Origin: Chitinophagaceae bacterium
GTDB lineage: Bacteria > Bacteroidota > Bacteroidia > Chitinophagales > Chitinophagaceae
NCBI GenBank assembly: GCA_023251285.1
Contig: JAHEZB010000135.1
Coordinates: 1-6,390 of the forward strand
Direction: 5' to 3'
DNA length: 6,390 nt
A program made the position numbers and the translations under genes. The notes beneath the pieces are model-generated. The model was not told the DNA's origin. It ran no database searches and worked only from the letters and a program-made list of their open reading frames with translations. Within the stretch, counting starts at the first letter, position 1. Every line of letters begins with the position of its first letter. Shown here piece after piece: positions 564 to 6,390 of the stretch.

Positions 564-917
564 TTTTTGTGTTGTTGCTTATTGCAATTTACAAAAAAGA
601 AAAAAGATGAAATAAAGTGATTGTCGATGAAGACACTGCTTCCCTATCTCATCAATTGATCTAATGAGTGCCCGAGGAAGATCATTTGCTCTAGAGCCGC
701 TGTCCTCACTGGCAGTTCATAACTTCTTCAATCATGAAATCCAACTGAGGTAAGATCTGCATCTCCCTTTCGAATATTTTGCAACTCTGATTCCCAGCCC
801 TGAGAAAAACCAAACGCCGGAACCCAAAAAGCACCATCCCCTGAATCCACCAGATAATAAAAGCACCATCTTTTCGTTCGTATCTTTAAAACTATTAAGA
901 ACCGTAAATTGACAGTT
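564..917. other. Intergenic region between divergent genes
   Basis: This 354-base gap separates the leftward oxidoreductase from the rightward gene at 918, so it should carry promoters for both. I see no gene of a known family. A minus-strand open frame at 728-955 runs into the coding start of the next gene and matches nothing I recognise. A perfect 10-bp palindrome, ATCAATTGAT, sits at 651-660. A TATTTTG string at about 775-781 resembles a -7 box but is one base short of the spacing. Confidence 0.6.
881..888 (+). promoter_or_regulatory. Candidate -7 box (TATCTTTA) for the gene at 918
   Basis: TATCTTTA matches the Bacteroidota -7 consensus TAnnTTTG at all but the last base. It lies 29 bases before the ATG at 918, a plausible distance for a short leader. 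No clear TTG is seen at the usual -33 distance, so the call is weak. Confidence 0.3.
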
Positions 918-1673
918 ATGCAATCATTACAACAGGAAATCAAAAAGGACATCATCAGCCATCCCTTTAGAAATATTGAGGTAATTTATGAGGTAAATAA
1001 AACCACACTCACACCACAGGATGAAGAGTTACTGTCCCGGTACATCAGCCTGCACGACCTGGAATTGCGGATGCAAAATACTGCCGATAATCTGTGCCGG
1101 CAATCTCTACTCGTAAACGACACCTTAGAGAGCTTACAGGAGGAGTTAAAAATCGTGGAGGCCAGCGTGGACGTTTGCATTCACCTGGCTGATAAACTGT
1201 CGGAGGAAAATTATGTAATGGAAGAAACCAGCATGAACAAACTCGATGATGCCCGTGAAGATACGCTGCAGAAGCTGAACGAATATAATGCGAAGATCCT
1301 GGAAGCGTATGAAGCTGCAAAAGCCATCCAGGACAGCATGAACGATCATAATGCAAAGAATGAAAACACCGCAGATGCTTTGTATTCTCAATTCTCCACG
1401 TTCAGCATGGATCATCTGGCAAATGAAAGCAATGCGATCAACCCTGTGGCTTTTGACACCCAGTTTGATCAATTCAGGGAATATGCATGTGCCAGGGAAA
1501 GCCAGCGCGAAGACCTGTTGCATACTTGTGATGAAATGATGAATAATTATACCAAACTGAATCTGCAAACCACCACCTTATATAATGTTTGGAATGAGTT
1601 TACGAAACGCAATGAACTGTTGATAAAAATATATCTTCTTCATAACAAAGTAACCGGGTTTACTGAAAATTAA
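918..1673 (+). CDS. Hypothetical acidic, helical cytoplasmic protein (251 aa)
   Basis: I do not recognise this family. The frame could start at a TTG at 909, adding three residues, but the ATG at 918 is the better start (MQSLQQEIKKDIISHP...). The protein is rich in Glu, Asp, Asn, Gln, Leu and Lys, with few glycines or prolines, so it should be nearly all alpha-helical. Residues about 34-145 show heptad-like spacing of Leu/Ile/Val/Ala (for example LESLQEELKIVEASV at 70-84), suggesting a coiled coil or helical bundle. A second helical block covers about 180-245. Four cysteines (60, 87, 191, 204) do not form a CxxC or another metal motif. There is no signal peptide, membrane segment or catalytic motif. 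It stands alone, with no gene on the same strand closer than 338 bases downstream. Coding use looks normal for the window and shadow frames on the other strand have no family features. It is probably a real gene of unknown role, perhaps structural or a binding partner. Confidence 0.8.
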   Translation: MQSLQQEIKKDIISHPFRNIEVIYEVNKTTLTPQDEELLSRYISLHDLELRMQNTADNLCRQSLLVNDTLESLQEELKIVEASVDVCIHLADKLSEENYVMEETSMNKLDDAREDTLQKLNEYNAKILEAYEAAKAIQDSMNDHNAKNENTADALYSQFSTFSMDHLANESNAINPVAFDTQFDQFREYACARESQREDLLHTCDEMMNNYTKLNLQTTTLYNVWNEFTKRNELLIKIYLLHNKVTGFTEN

Positions 1674-2388: not shown

Positions 2389-4221
2389 TTACAGGCTCTG
2401 GGCTGAAGCAGGAATGGAAAAATAAAAAGTTGAACCCTTTTTCAGCTGACTGACAGCCCATATTTTTCCTCCATGCCTGCTGATGATTTGCGAGGCGATA
2501 TACAGTCCTATTCCTGAGCCGCTAAATGTAGAGGTAATGCCGCTCACTCTGTAAAACCGGGTGAAAATATTGTTCAGGTCGTCTGCCGGAATGCCAATAC
2601 CTTGATCCTCTATACCCACGATAATAGCATCCTCGGATCTGAATGCGTTCACCTTTATTTCTTTTGAGTTGGGTGAATATTTTATCGCGTTTCCCAACAG
2701 GTTGACTATTACAAGGCCTATCCTCTCCCTGTCTCCATATGCCGGCAGGATATCATTGGTATTTTTCAGAAAGATCTTAATTTCGGTAGTAAGCTGCAGG
2801 TTGTGTATCATCTCTTTTAATAAACCATTCATGTCAAAATCTGCAAGGTTTAATTCCAGTTTTCCTGCCTGGATCTTTGAAATATCCAGCAGATCATTGA
2901 TCAGTTTATTTAATTTTTCCACCTGTTTTAAGGTGTTTTCAACAAACAGAACATTTTCATCTTGCTGCATTTTAAGATACATGATATCAAGGTTGGCCTT
3001 AATAATGGTAAGCGGTGTTTTTAATTCATGACTGGCCATCGTCATAAATTCATCCTTGTATTTATTAAGTTGCTTCAATTTTTCTGTATAAAGGAGCCGC
3101 TGTTTTTCAATCTGCATTTTTTCTGTAACGTCCCTCGCAATCTTTGAAGCGCCTATAATTTTGCCTGCCTTATTTCGTATCGGTGAAACCGTTAAAGAAA
3201 TATTCAGCTCTCTTCCATCTTTGGCGACCCTGACAGTTTCGAAATGTTTAATTCTATTACCACTACGGATGTTTTCTATTATCATCGTCTCTTCATCCAT
3301 CCTGTCTGGCGGAATAATAATAGAAATATGCCTGCCTATTACCTCAGCTTCGGTATAACCAAACATTTTGGTAGCAGCCTCGTTCCAGCTGGTAATAATA
3401 CCGAAAAGCGTTTTGCTTATAATTGCATCATCAGATGAACTTACAATTGCAGCCAGCGTAGCCTGTTTTTCTTCTGCCAGCTTCTGATCGGATATGTCGC
3501 GTGCGATCTTCGAAGCGCCGATAATATTCCCTTCCTGGTCTTTAATGGGTGAAACGGTTAAAGAGATCTTTATTTTTTGCTTATTTTTTGCGATCCTGAC
3601 GGTACGGAAATGATCTATCTTTAATCCTTTTCTTACATTTTCTAATATCGTCTGTTCTTCCCGGAGCCGCTCAGGCGGAATAATGATAGAAATATTGTTG
3701 CCAATAGCTTCACTTTCAGAATAGCCAAACATTTTTTCGGCAGCGGGATTCCAACTGATGATGATGCCGTCCAGTGTTTTACTTACGATAGCGTCGTCAG
3801 AAGAATTTACAATTGCCCAGAGAACTGCCTGCTTCTCATTAAGTATTTTTTGCGCAGAAATATCGCGGGCAATTATTGACATGCCCGTCGCATTTGTGTT
3901 ACTTCCTTTTAAAGGAGAAACGGTAAGGGAAATATCAATTTTATTACCGTCTTTTGTTTTCCGGACCGTCTCATAATGTTTTATCTTCTCTCCATTTCTT
4001 ACCTGGTTGATAATTCTTTCCTGCTCTTCATAAAATTCCTCGGGAACAATAATTGAAATATGATTATTTATTGCTTCGCTGGCAGAATATCTAAAAATGT
4101 TTTCAGCTCCCTGGTTCCAGCTGGTGATAATGCCATCAAATTTATTGCTGATGATCGCATCATCTGCCGAATCAACAATGGCTGATAATCTTGCTTCAAT
4201 TTCTTCATCCTGTGTGTTCAC
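2389..4221 (-). CDS. Soluble sensor histidine kinase with three tandem PAS domains
   Basis: This 610-residue protein starts with GTG at 4221. A stop codon lies immediately upstream in frame and the next Met is residue 114, so GTG is forced. Three PAS domains begin near residues 14, 136 and 258, each carrying an AIVxSxDDAI...SWN motif and an IARD exit. A helical linker (about 370-392) leads to HisKA with the H-box ASHELKTPL, in which His398 is the likely phosphoacceptor. HATPase_c follows with N-box Asn507/Asn511, G1 DQGIGIP (539-545), F-box FTRFYR (553-558) and G2 GSGIGL (568-573). All key residues are present, so it should be active. No membrane segment or signal peptide is seen, implying a cytoplasmic sensor. 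FixL carries a haem-ligating His in the segment after the conserved proline, where these PAS copies have Glu-rich sequence, so FixL-type haem binding is unlikely. The ligand is unknown. No response regulator lies within the window, so the kinase looks orphan. Confidence 0.96.
   Translation of the reverse strand: MNTQDEEIEARLSAIVDSADDAIISNKFDGIITSWNQGAENIFRYSASEAINNHISIIVPEEFYEEQERIINQVRNGEKIKHYETVRKTKDGNKIDISLTVSPLKGSNTNATGMSIIARDISAQKILNEKQAVLWAIVNSSDDAIVSKTLDGIIISWNPAAEKMFGYSESEAIGNNISIIIPPERLREEQTILENVRKGLKIDHFRTVRIAKNKQKIKISLTVSPIKDQEGNIIGASKIARDISDQKLAEEKQATLAAIVSSSDDAIISKTLFGIITSWNEAATKMFGYTEAEVIGRHISIIIPPDRMDEETMIIENIRSGNRIKHFETVRVAKDGRELNISLTVSPIRNKAGKIIGASKIARDVTEKMQIEKQRLLYTEKLKQLNKYKDEFMTMASHELKTPLTIIKANLDIMYLKMQQDENVLFVENTLKQVEKLNKLINDLLDISKIQAGKLELNLADFDMNGLLKEMIHNLQLTTEIKIFLKNTNDILPAYGDRERIGLVIVNLLGNAIKYSPNSKEIKVNAFRSEDAIIVGIEDQGIGIPADDLNNIFTRFYRVSGITSTFSGSGIGLYIASQIISRHGGKIWAVSQLKKGSTFYFSIPASAQSL
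3085..4182 (-). repeat. Three tandem in-frame 366-bp PAS-coding repeats
   Basis: Residues 14-135, 136-257 and 258-379 of the kinase align without a single gap, at a period of exactly 122 residues (366 bp). By hand count, copies 2 and 3 agree at 72 of 107 positions up to the IARD motif, about two-thirds. Copy 1 is more diverged, for example NKFDG where the others have KTLDG or KTLFG. This points to internal duplication, with copies 2 and 3 more alike and probably the later event. Confidence 0.85.
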
Positions 4222-4306: not shown

Positions 4307-4490
4307 ACATCATTATGTTTAAAATAGCGAAGGCAAATGCCCAATGCGGGATGATTTGAGTAAACAATCAGCTTTGGTGAACCCCAATTGTGCTAAGATC
4401 CGTTACTGATTGCAAAACCCATTCAATCCTGCTTTATGTAGGTAAATCTTGCACCGTCACAATCCGAACCACGAAGCGTCAATCCTGATT

Positions 4491-4516
4491 TGTCCAATTT
4501 TGAAAGTCCGATCGTT
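4491..4516 (+). promoter_or_regulatory. ECF-type promoter, TGTCCA-N16-CGTT, for the AhpD-like gene
   Basis: A -35-like TGTCCA (4491-4496) and a -10-like CGTT (4513-4516) are separated by 16 bases, the spacing typical of ECF sigma promoters. Nearly the same element precedes the DGPF gene. The two 40-bp blocks (4490-4529 and 5023-5062) agree at 30 positions, concentrated in TTGTCCAATT, ATCGT, ATTA and TTTTTAAC. The known ECF42 promoter in Streptomyces is TGTCGA...CGTC, closely similar. The likely recognising factor is the sigma encoded at 5596. The predicted leader is about 25 bases. Confidence 0.7.
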
Positions 4517-4546
4517 ATTAGTTTTTAACTCACAAAAACAAATGGA

Positions 4547-5008
4547 ATGGAAACAAGAATTGATCTTTTAGAAAAAGGGCAACATGTAATAAAACTATTG
4601 TATCCTCTCGGTAGCTATTTAGCAAAATCATCACTTGGAAAACCACTTTTAGACCTGGTAGATTTCAGGGTTTCTCAAATCAATGGATGCGCCTTTTGCC
4701 TGGATATGCATTCAAAAGACTTGCGGGCAGCGGGGGAAACCGAACAACGTCTTTACACCCTCGACGCCTGGCGTGAAGCGCCTTTCTATACTGACCGGGA
4801 ACGGGCGGCTCTTACCTGGGCCGAGGCTGTTACCAAAATTACAAATGGCAATATTCCGGATGAGGTCTATGAAACGGCCAGGAAGCAGTTTTCAGAAGAA
4901 GAACTCGTTGACCTGACCCTCGCTGTCACCACGATCAACACATATAACCGGATCAATATTGCCTTTCGCCCGCCGGTCGGAACTTATAAAGTTGGTCAAT
5001 TCAGTTAA
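4547..5008 (+). CDS. Carboxymuconolactone decarboxylase / AhpD-like family protein
   Basis: The product has 153 residues. The core motif is GCAFCLDMHSKDLRAAGE at 47-64, giving C48-x-x-C51-x-x-x-H55, the redox cysteine pair and histidine of AhpD-type alkylhydroperoxidase and related proteins. The Arg/Ala/Glu-rich helices after it (YTDRERAALTWAEAVT, 81-96, and the VDLTLAVTTINTYNRIN helix, 111-127) are typical of the family. Such proteins are cytoplasmic, form all-helical oligomers and act in peroxide reduction or related thiol chemistry. The actual substrate here is unknown. The ATG at 4547 fits the family N-terminus. Another ATG at 4542 is out of frame. It is followed after 72 bases by the DGPF gene, which has its own copy of the ECF-type promoter, so the two may be co-expressed but need not share one transcript. 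AhpD-like and DGPF proteins are both known neighbours of ECF41/ECF42 sigma genes. Confidence 0.92.
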   Translation: METRIDLLEKGQHVIKLLYPLGSYLAKSSLGKPLLDLVDFRVSQINGCAFCLDMHSKDLRAAGETEQRLYTLDAWREAPFYTDRERAALTWAEAVTKITNGNIPDEVYETARKQFSEEELVDLTLAVTTINTYNRINIAFRPPVGTYKVGQFS

Positions 5009-5023
5009 TAGTTTTTCTTTGAT

Positions 5024-5049
5024 TGTCCAATTCAGCCAACTCAATCGTC
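5024..5049 (+). promoter_or_regulatory. ECF-type promoter, TGTCCA-N16-CGTC, for the DGPF gene
   Basis: TGTCCA (5024-5029) and CGTC (5046-5049) have exactly the same 16-base spacing as the copy before the AhpD-like gene and match the ECF42-type pattern even better, with the full CGTC. It lies in the 72-base gap just after the stop codon at 5008. The predicted transcript would start near 5056, leaving a leader of about 25 bases before the ATG at 5081. Confidence 0.72.
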
Positions 5050-5080
5050 ATTATTTTTTAACCATTAAAACTTAAATAAC

Positions 5081-5416
5081 ATGAAAGATTTCTTATTCTT
5101 ATTCAGGATGAATGGCGCTCCCGGCGGCTCCCCTGATGAAATGCAAGCGATGACGAAACGCTGGATGGACTGGATAGGAGGTATTGCGGCTCAAAATAAA
5201 TTAACGGACCGCGGTAACCGTCTTTTTCCCTCCGGTAAAGTGGTAAAACCTGGTAATATTATCACCGACGGGCCTTATTCAGAAATTAAAGAAACGATCG
5301 GAGGTTACACCATTGTAAAGGCCGATTCGCTGGAAGAAGCCACCGAAATGGCAAAAGGATGCCCGGGCCTTTCAGTCGGCGGAAGTGTGGAGGTGAGAGA
5401 GATCCAGGCGATGTAG
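5081..5416 (+). CDS. YCII-family protein with DGPF motif
   Basis: The product has 111 residues, a usual length for the family. It opens MKDFLFLFRMN, the first beta strand of the ferredoxin-like YCII fold. Residues 63-66 are DGPY, the DGPF-domain signature, inside GNIITDGPYSEIKE (58-71), followed by the conserved GGYTIVKADSLEEATEMAK strand and helix (74-92). These are small cytoplasmic dimeric proteins. Their biochemical role is not settled, though they are the most constant neighbours and targets of ECF42 sigma factors. The ATG at 5081 is preceded by AATAAC and has no Shine-Dalgarno. The 3' end is followed at once by a partial copy of the palindromic repeat, whose first bases overlap the TAG stop. 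Position between an AhpD-like gene and an ECF42-like sigma gene, plus its own matching promoter, supports membership in that regulon. Confidence 0.94.
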   Translation: MKDFLFLFRMNGAPGGSPDEMQAMTKRWMDWIGGIAAQNKLTDRGNRLFPSGKVVKPGNIITDGPYSEIKETIGGYTIVKADSLEEATEMAKGCPGLSVGGSVEVREIQAM

Positions 5417-5533
5417 GTTGCCTGAAGGTTGCCAACCTTAATCATTGCGTTTTGAATAATAGTAAACGTTTGAAGGTTGGCAACCTTAGATCCGGCGGAA
5501 CATTAGAAAACAGTTCCGAAGGTTGCCAACCTT
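5415..5533. repeat. Cluster of three 15-bp palindromic repeats plus a partial copy
   Basis: AAGGTTG-C-CAACCTT occurs at 5425-5439 and 5519-5533. The middle copy at 5473-5487 has G at the centre, so it is the same element in reverse orientation. Starts are 48 and 46 bases apart. A partial copy, AGGTTGCC (5415-5422), overlaps the stop of the DGPF gene. After copies 2 and 3 the string ATTAGAAAAC recurs (5502-5511, 5546-5555), so the repeat unit may be longer than the palindrome. The near-zero loop favours a protein-binding site or a dispersed REP-like element over a hairpin terminator, although a 6-bp stem with a GCC loop is possible in RNA. Confidence 0.8.
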
Positions 5534-5560
5534 AATGCGAGGAAAATTAGAAAACCCTTG

Positions 5561-5588
5561 AATGCCTTTGTACTTTTGCAAAGGCATT
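5561..5588. repeat. Perfect 10-bp inverted repeat around the sigma-gene -7 box
   Basis: The arms AATGCCTTTG (5561-5570) and CAAAGGCATT (5579-5588) are exact reverse complements with an 8-base loop. The loop is exactly the -7 box TACTTTTG. The right arm ends seven bases before the sigma ATG and is followed by a T-rich run. It could be a repressor operator straddling the promoter. Alternatively it could be an intrinsic terminator-like hairpin ending read-through from the DGPF gene. The sequence alone does not decide. Confidence 0.7.
5571..5578 (+). promoter_or_regulatory. -7 box (TACTTTTG) for the ECF sigma gene
   Basis: TACTTTTG followed by CA matches the Bacteroidota consensus TAnnTTTG perfectly and lies 17 bases before the ATG at 5596, so the leader would be only about ten bases. 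No good -33 TTG is visible at the expected place. No TGTCCA/CGTC element occurs upstream, so this gene appears to be transcribed by the primary sigma, not by its own product. Confidence 0.55.
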
Positions 5589-5595
5589 TATTTTT

Positions 5596-6390
5596 ATGAA
5601 ACAGACAGAACTGATCCCCCATTTATTCAGAACAGAATACCAGAAAATCGTTTCGGTGCTTTATAAATTGTTTGGCATTGACCACATCGAAATTGCAGAG
5701 GATATTGTGAGCGATACTTTCCTTTCAGCTTCTGAATTGTGGGGATTGAAAGGGCTCCCTGAAAATCCTACAGCCTGGCTTTATACCGTTGCAAAAAATA
5801 AGACCAGGGATTACCTGAAACATCATTCCATTTTTACCCGGAAGATTGCAAAAGAAATAAAGTACAATGCGGAAACATTCCACGAAACAGAGGTCGATCT
5901 TTCCTTGAAAAATATTAATGACAGCCAGCTGGCCATGATCTTCACAGTATGTCATCCGTGCAATCCTCCGGAAGCACAAACGGGGCTCGCGTTAAACCTT
6001 CTTTGCGGCTTTGGAGCAGGAGAAGTTGCCAATGCTTTCCTGACGAACAAAGAAGTAATTTATAAAAGATTGCAACGGGCCAAAGAAAAACTGAGAAATG
6101 AAAAAATTAGAATAGAGCAACCGGCTTTACCAGAAATAAACGAGCGGTTGCCGGCCGTTTTACTCACTTTGTACCTTCTTTTTAATGAAGGCTATTATTC
6201 CTCAAACCAGGATGTCAGCTTGCGAAAAGATCTCTGCCTGGAAGCCATGCGGCTAACTTATTTGCTTATTGAAAACGACTTTACGAATCAACCTGCTGTG
6301 AACGCGTTATTCGCGCTGATGTGTTTTCATTCCTCCCGTTTTGAAGCAAGAACCGATGAAGATGGAGGCTCCATTTTATACGAAGACCAG
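5596..6390 (+). CDS. ECF42-like RNA polymerase sigma factor with DUF6596-type C-terminal extension, 3' end outside the window
   Basis: The frame is open for 265 codons from the ATG at 5596 to the last base. Complete family members are about 400-420 residues, so about two-thirds is present. Sigma region 2 covers about 10-76 (AEDIVSDTFLSA at 34-45, then PTAWLYTVAKNKTRDYL at 58-74). A linker carries the subgroup mark IFTVCHP (115-121). Region 4 with its helix-turn-helix covers about 125-167, ending YKRLQRAKEKLR. The extension begins near 180 and shows LYLLFNEGYYSS (192-203), the signature of COG4941/DUF6596. ECF42 factors use this C-terminal extension in place of a separate anti-sigma and typically control DGPF genes. 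Here the DGPF and AhpD-like genes lie directly upstream with a shared ECF-type promoter. No anti-sigma gene is seen within the window. IFTVCHP has Val where many relatives have a second Cys (IFTCCHP). Confidence 0.95.
   Translation, partial: MKQTELIPHLFRTEYQKIVSVLYKLFGIDHIEIAEDIVSDTFLSASELWGLKGLPENPTAWLYTVAKNKTRDYLKHHSIFTRKIAKEIKYNAETFHETEVDLSLKNINDSQLAMIFTVCHPCNPPEAQTGLALNLLCGFGAGEVANAFLTNKEVIYKRLQRAKEKLRNEKIRIEQPALPEINERLPAVLLTLYLLFNEGYYSSNQDVSLRKDLCLEAMRLTYLLIENDFTNQPAVNALFALMCFHSSRFEARTDEDGGSILYEDQ

What the first reader, a model, noticed from the sequence alone, without database searches (positions are those of the whole stretch)
4490..5062. Two matched ECF-type promoters define a local regulon for the neighbouring sigma factor
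The AhpD-like and DGPF genes are each preceded by TGTCCA-N16-CGT(C/T), with identical 16-base spacing inside 40-bp blocks that agree at 30 positions. The regions around them are otherwise unrelated. An ECF42-like sigma gene follows and lacks this element. The pattern is close to the ECF42 promoter described in Streptomyces (TGTCGA...CGTC) but with CCA in the -35 part, suggesting a Bacteroidota variant of the target site. Pairing an AhpD-like gene (more usual for ECF41) with DGPF in one ECF42-type regulon is also notable.
Basis: partly seen in the sequence, partly recalled or inferred. Interest (0 to 1): 0.72.

Follow-up and report, generated by a model that had tools for sequence, protein, structure and literature searches.

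The report
Self-contained ECF42 sigma-factor promoter circuit
Two matching 40-letter DNA boxes sit before an AhpD-like gene and a DGPF gene next to a sigma-factor gene and are likely that sigma factor's own promoters; the same box recurs before the same genes in many Bacteroidota, differs by one letter from the box of other groups in step with one residue of the sigma factor's predicted DNA-reading helix, and a recurrent hairpin just before the sigma gene would act as a brake on the loop.

Summary
In detail: TGTCCA-N16-CGTY at 4491 and 5024, in 40-bp blocks agreeing at 30 positions (shuffles reach 24). It is very likely the promoter of the neighbouring ECF42-type sigma factor. In 60 same-family genomes, 18 of 73 matches to the extended box lie within 150 bp upstream of DGPF or AhpD genes (0.0014 expected); the box precedes 31 of 67 sigma-linked target genes and 0 of 56 sigma genes. 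Corrections: a 17-bp spacer is the rule (86 of 93 sites); only TGTCC is fixed; TGTCC also occurs in Verrucomicrobia and some Acidobacteria. TGTCC goes with Lys in the sigma recognition helix and TGTCG with Gln (89 and 14 loci, one clear exception), but on few independent evolutionary events. AhpD-DGPF-ECF42 is a recurrent cluster; an ECF41 sigma was found in 1 of 12 genomes with this AhpD class. New here: a terminator-like hairpin abuts the sigma start codon in 32 of 43 Bacteroidota DGPF-sigma gaps of 35-90 nt (10 of 103 control gaps), with compensatory changes; it probably attenuates sigma expression. There are no expression data, and two key ECF42 papers were not held. Verdict: new variant of a known kind.

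The parts
4490..4529 (+). promoter-like box before the AhpD-like gene: -35 TGTCCA 4491-4496, 16-bp spacer, -10 CGTT 4513-4516
   Evidence: same place in same-genus G045
4547..5008 (+). AhpD-like gene (carboxymuconolactone decarboxylase family, PF02627)
5023..5062 (+). promoter-like box before the DGPF gene: -35 TGTCCA 5024-5029, 16-bp spacer, -10 CGTC 5046-5049
5081..5416 (+). DGPF/YCII gene (PF03795)
5559..5590 (+). terminator-like hairpin, 14 pairs, then TTTTT, ending 5 nt before the sigma ATG
   Evidence: recurrence; compensatory changes
5596..6390 (+). ECF42-type sigma gene (Sigma70_r2, DUF6596), cut by the contig end
   Evidence: complete relative of 414 aa in G045
6043..6096 (+). predicted -35 recognition helix TNKEVIYKRLQRAKEKLR; Lys157 codon 6064-6066
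   Evidence: aligned with the serine of TVRSRIFRAR in chain 1or7_A (sigma-E)

Best explanation
The two boxes are likely promoters read by the ECF42-type sigma factor encoded just downstream, so that the AhpD-like and DGPF genes would be its targets and the sigma gene would be fed by read-through from upstream across a hairpin that is predicted to stop part of the transcripts. Shown from sequence: the box recurs at the same place before orthologous genes in many genera and before some AhpD genes far from any detected sigma gene; it is absent before the sigma genes; the fifth -35 base (C or G) goes with one recognition-helix residue (Lys or Gln); a hairpin with compensatory changes sits directly before the sigma start codon. 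Inferred: that RNA polymerase with this sigma factor starts at the boxes; that the C-terminal extension controls its activity (published for ECF42 as a proposal; I did not search for anti-sigma genes); that the lysine itself makes the C preference; that the hairpin is an intrinsic terminator keeping sigma low relative to DGPF; that the targets counter oxidants or electrophiles.
For: De novo dyads over 67 target upstreams put GTCC-N17-TTGT on top (19 of 67; largest of 30 Markov sets 10, dyads of two letters or fewer left out) and the strict box is in 31 of 67 targets and 0 of 56 sigma upstreams. 18 of 73 pattern hits lie within 150 bp upstream of DGPF/AhpD, 0.0014 expected. AhpD loci at 64% identity or more: TGTCC box in 12 of 12; at 50% or less: 1 of 16, not box-like. 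Recurrence in named Bacteroidota. S. meliloti RpoE10 (ECF42) promoters mapped in PMC6180224 have the same TGTC and CGTC cores (passages). TGTCC in 89 Lys loci, TGTCG in 14 Gln loci. Hairpin in 32 of 43 gaps against 10 of 103 controls, 8 of 11 pairs with changes on both sides.
Against: No transcript start or sigma-dependence was measured. The pattern as written is not enriched genome-wide, and 36 of 67 target upstreams lack the strict box: by eye some hold near variants, some are inner genes of an operon, others show nothing. 55 of 73 hits are not near these genes and are about as dense in genomes without the sigma factor. One DGPF gene with a box (G054) is in a genome where no sigma gene was found (86% complete). 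L273 has Lys with TGTCG and L308 Lys with TGTCT; 28 of 42 Gln loci gave no box. The tree gives one well-supported independent pair for Lys/Gln against C/G. The hairpin could serve RNA stability or translation; its stem has only 4 G-C pairs here.
Confidence: 0.8

Rival explanations
1. An ECF41-type sigma factor, whose known targets are carboxymuconolactone-decarboxylase genes behind TGTCACA-n16-CGTC, drives the AhpD box, and the DGPF box resembles it secondarily.
For: Same cores and 16-bp spacer, and an AhpD-like target (PMC3426412, passages).
Against: An ECF41-like (SigJ model, E<=1e-20) gene was found in 6 of 60 genomes; of the 12 genomes whose best AhpD is at least 64% identical only G045 has one, with three in-frame stops. 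In five genomes the ECF41-like gene lies beside another AhpD class (23-44% identical). The fifth -35 base is C, not A. Limits: no match passed the model's cut-off, scored candidates were capped at 32 in some genomes, and G000 is 72% complete.
Confidence: 0.04
2. The boxes are operators for some other regulator, not promoters of the sigma factor.
For: No transcript data.
Against: Two-part layout with 16-17-bp spacing, TGTC and CGTC cores as in mapped ECF42 promoters, and the -35 base goes with a residue of this sigma factor.
Confidence: 0.08
3. The second box is a recent local copy of the first and has no function of its own.
For: Both boxes have the rarer 16-bp spacer.
Against: Similarity stops outside the block (24% at 4400-4486); both boxes are present in G045 with different spacer letters; boxes recur before DGPF genes in many genera.
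Confidence: 0.02
4. The hairpin is not a terminator but a translation or RNA-stability element of the sigma mRNA.
For: It ends 4-15 nt before the ATG in most loci, where it could hinder ribosomes.
Against: T-rich tail in most copies (one search list) and terminator shape.
Confidence: 0.35

Closest known systems
ECF42 sigma factors with DGPF/YCII neighbours (S. meliloti RpoE10, P. putida ECF-10, S. venezuelae Sven_0747)
   Same: DGPF/YCII gene directly upstream, DUF6596 and TPR-like C-terminal extension, TGTC -35 and CGTC -10 cores
   Different: Fifth -35 base C instead of G with Lys instead of Gln in the helix; AhpD-like target; hairpin before the sigma gene; RpoE10 did not raise its own upstream YCII gene in S. 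meliloti
ECF41 sigma factors with CMD/AhpD targets (B. licheniformis, R. sphaeroides)
   Same: CMD-family target, few local targets, promoter with the same cores and n16 spacing
   Different: No SnoaL-like match in the window or G045 sigma factor; fifth -35 base C, not A; different AhpD class

Membership tests
ECF42 | ECF sigma regions 2 and 4 | tested here: met
   Sigma70_r2 over cut-off; region 4 aligns with sigma-E chains in the profile search but Sigma70_r4_2 stays below its Pfam cut-off in two relatives
ECF42 | About 200-residue TPR-rich C-terminal extension | tested here: met
   DUF6596 in the window and three relatives; the profile's C-terminal part matches TPR chains such as TOM70. No TPR family over cut-off; the window's own gene is cut
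ECF42 | DGPF/YCII gene next to the sigma gene | tested here: met
   window 5081-5416; in most family loci
ECF42 | No anti-sigma gene nearby | not tested
   stated for the group in PMC6180224 (passages)
ECF42 | TGTC -35 and CGTC -10 cores | tested here: met
ECF42 | G at the fifth -35 base (described trait, not a definition of the group) | tested here: not met
   C here; the variation goes with Lys/Gln
ECF41 | SnoaL-like C-terminal extension | tested here: not met
   no SnoaL match; DUF6596 instead
ECF41 | TGTCACA-n16-CGTC promoter | tested here: not met
   TGTCCAA instead
Intrinsic terminator (hairpin 5559-5590) | Stem followed by a T-run | tested here: met
   14 pairs, 4 of them G-C, TTTTT tail
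Intrinsic terminator (hairpin 5559-5590) | Transcripts end there | not testable with these tools
   needs 3' end mapping

The most novel reading that the evidence does not exclude
ECF42 circuits speak two promoter dialects set by one recognition-helix residue (Lys reads TGTCC, Gln reads TGTCG), and the Bacteroidota branch runs its loop through a built-in terminator hairpin abutting the sigma start codon, so that sigma is made only by read-through from its own target promoter: a hard-wired brake on a positive feedback loop without an anti-sigma factor.
Probability: 0.35. Interest if true: 0.65.

Novelty: new variant of a known kind. Interest (0 to 1): 0.5.

Why it matters
ECF42 sigma factors are widespread and published work names no anti-sigma factor for them (passages), so how their feedback is limited is open. 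A recurrent hairpin between target and sigma gene offers a concrete, testable brake. The C/G switch with the Lys/Gln residue, if causal, would help assign promoters to ECF42 sigma factors from sequence and is a small test case for -35 specificity. The box also predicts target genes (AhpD-like, DoxX-like, DinB-like, RibD-like, flavin-oxidoreductase and dehydrogenase genes) in Bacteroidota. No listing or 67 showed an ECF42 promoter from this phylum, but the founding ECF42 study and the 2021 re-classification were not held.

Tried and rejected
ECF41 as the driver: considered and disfavoured. Genome-wide enrichment of the exact pattern: not found. Many independent events for Lys/Gln against C/G: not supported by the tree. 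Rfam: no family in the window at gathering thresholds. Viral contigs: one partial relative, not followed. A 16- or 17-bp spacer insulating two ECF42 systems in one genome (G045 and G009 have one of each): left as a lead, since helix residues did not separate the spacers (by eye). Papers on a terminator-attenuated ECF loop or on AhpD with DGPF: listings gave nothing fitting. An early dyad count was discarded because coding sequence leaked in; one search replaced it.

Full report
What is there. The window is the whole of contig C458 of an unnamed draft assembly, 3.2 Mb, 72% complete. The best named matches of its sigma family are Bacteroidota; the window's family is probably Chitinophagaceae, which I did not show. 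On the plus strand lie an AhpD-like gene (4547-5008), a DGPF/YCII gene (5081-5416) and a sigma gene with region 2 and DUF6596 that runs off the contig (5596-6390). In the same-genus genome G045 the order is the same; its sigma protein has 414 aa with DUF6596, and the C-terminal part of the family profile resembles TPR proteins.

The boxes. The two 40-bp blocks agree at exactly 30 positions; 100 shuffled pairs reach at most 24. As written, TGTCCA-N16-CGTY is unremarkable genome-wide: 7 matches against 13 for the reversed control. Extended by recurrent letters it occurs twice in the assembly, both here, against 0 for the control.

Family survey. In 60 genomes of the family, the assembly included, DGPF relatives were found in 36, AhpD relatives in 39 and the sigma factor in 33 (56 hits). 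A de novo dyad count over 67 upstream regions of sigma-linked DGPF/AhpD genes puts GTCC-N17-TTGT and its one-base shift on top (19 of 67 each; largest count in 30 Markov sets 10, dyads of two letters or fewer left out). The strict box is in 31 of 67 target upstreams and 0 of 56 sigma upstreams. Many of the 36 misses show near variants by eye, or are inner genes of an operon; others show nothing. Of 73 exact extended-pattern hits, 18 lie within 150 bp upstream of a DGPF or AhpD gene, against 0.0014 expected from the density of the rest (68 of 77 DGPF and 15 of 82 AhpD hits used). Seventeen of the 18 are in genomes with a detected sigma gene; the other is in G054 (86% complete). The remaining 55 hits are about equally dense in genomes with and without the sigma factor (0.24 and 0.18 per Mb), so most are probably chance. 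This fits a sigma factor with very few targets.

AhpD. Among 30 AhpD loci (best hit of 30 genomes, of 82 hits), 12 of 12 at 64% identity or more have a TGTCC box, 13 of 14 at 56% or more, and 1 of 16 at 50% or less, the last not box-like. Three of the 12 are far from any detected sigma gene (G009, G001, G018); for G030 the AhpD gene ends at a contig end, so linkage cannot be told. A further AhpD of G018 (57%) was not examined. Several boxes of this class have CATTAT or CATCAT in place of CGTYAT. AhpD stands beside the sigma gene in 8 of the 55 other family loci, upstream of it in 6 of 80 loci of the genome scan and in one Acidobacteria locus (L313). An ECF41-like gene was found in 6 of 60 genomes, none over the model's cut-off; of the 12 genomes with the window's AhpD class only G045 has one, with three in-frame stops, and in five genomes the ECF41-like gene lies beside another AhpD class. 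In some genomes only 32 candidates were scored.

Dialects. Over loci from the family survey, a genome scan, plasmids, and Acidobacteria and Verrucomicrobia surveys, position 8 of the recognition-helix string is Lys in 145 loci and Gln in 42. Without duplicates, TGTCC was found in 89 Lys loci and TGTCG in 14 Gln loci; 28 Gln loci gave no box. Within the Acidobacteria loci, four Lys loci have TGTCC and one TGTCT, and eight Gln loci have TGTCG. Against: L273 (Lys, Verrucomicrobia) has TGTCG; L160's apparent TGTCA I judge a spurious hit. The tree, built without the helix columns, needs 2 changes for Lys, 4 for Gln and 5 for the base, and gives one well-supported independent pair, two over all branches. 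The association is strong across loci but thin as evolution. The residue aligns with the serine of TVRSRIFRAR in sigma-E chain 1or7_A (E. coli is recalled); that this residue lies at the -35 DNA there is recalled, not tested. Other helix positions differ as well.

Spacer. Among distinct TGTCC sites of Lys loci, 86 have 17 bp and 7 have 16 bp; the latter are in the window, L128 (G045), L133 (G009), L256 and L257.

Hairpin. In the window a 14-pair stem with a TTTTT tail ends 5 nt before the sigma ATG. In the Bacteroidota loci L128-L182 and L203-L259 with a DGPF-sigma gap of 35-90 nt, 32 of 43 gaps fold with z below -3, against 10 of 103 other same-strand gaps of that size in the same loci (Fisher p 1.7e-14; gene calls were crude). 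The window (gap 179) is outside the 43; its last 75 nt score z -3.3. Of 21 further loci with such a gap, 3 pass: L267, L276 and L280, all titled Bacteroidota; by my count none of the 15 from other phyla does. A Streptomyces plasmid locus with a longer gap (L193, 197 nt) also folds strongly. Against a second control, 60 nt before DGPF/AhpD genes, the numbers are 38 of 83 and 12 of 186. Gaps under 35 nt (59 of 156 pairs) can hardly hold it, so the hairpin is not universal. In 19 chosen hairpins 90% of cells pair, 8 of 11 pairs have changes on both sides, and every slid control is lower (the structure is the window's own). I read it as an intrinsic terminator that lowers sigma relative to DGPF. 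The few bases between hairpin and ATG leave no room for a promoter, so sigma transcripts would have to come through it. A role in stability or translation is not excluded.

Regulon. The same box with a 17-bp spacer precedes other genes in such loci: DoxX-like, flavin oxidoreductase (PF00724), three DinB_2, RibD_C, a short-chain dehydrogenase and a flavodoxin-fold gene; an NAD-epimerase and a DUF1801 gene lie elsewhere. I chose these ten from the list and left two others (L103, L106) unscanned; they are leads.

Literature. Passages only: S. meliloti RpoE10 promoters (TGTCGG with CGTC), TPR extension and missing anti-sigma genes of ECF42 (PMC6180224); control of ECF42 by its extension (PMC8999054; PMC8103513); ECF41 consensus and CMD targets (PMC3426412). 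In S. meliloti RpoE10 did not raise its own upstream YCII gene, which speaks against autoregulation there. The founding ECF42 study and the 2021 re-classification are not held, so a Bacteroidota motif may already be in print there.

Verdict. Observation confirmed; interpretation right in substance and corrected in spacing, consensus and scope. The most interesting addition is the hairpin that abuts the sigma start codon.

Noticed in passing
window 5424-5536: Three copies of AAGGTTGSCAACCTT, 48 and 46 bp apart with alternating middle base, fill the DGPF-sigma gap (179 bp here, 55 bp in G045). The assembly holds 13 places on 5 contigs and 0 for the reversed control, mostly in pairs 46-51 bp apart: a dispersed paired-palindrome element.
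   Followed up: partly
G045:C23 (L128, L132) and G009:C1/C5 (L133, L135): Genomes with two ECF42 loci have one with 16-bp and one with 17-bp spacers, which might keep the two systems apart.
   Followed up: no
G045:C4:29033-29665: The same-genus genome's only ECF41-like gene match has three in-frame stops and lies beside a distant AhpD gene.
   Followed up: no
window 2389-4221, minus strand: Soluble-looking histidine kinase with three PAS domains, HisKA and HATPase; no response regulator in the window's listed ORFs.
   Followed up: no
window 909-1673, plus strand: 254-aa ORF without a Pfam or NCBIfam match.
   Followed up: no
AhpD-class boxes, e.g. L040, L044, L047, L049, L233, L235: The -10 element is CATTAT rather than CGTYAT in several AhpD promoters, which may tune their output.
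   Followed up: no
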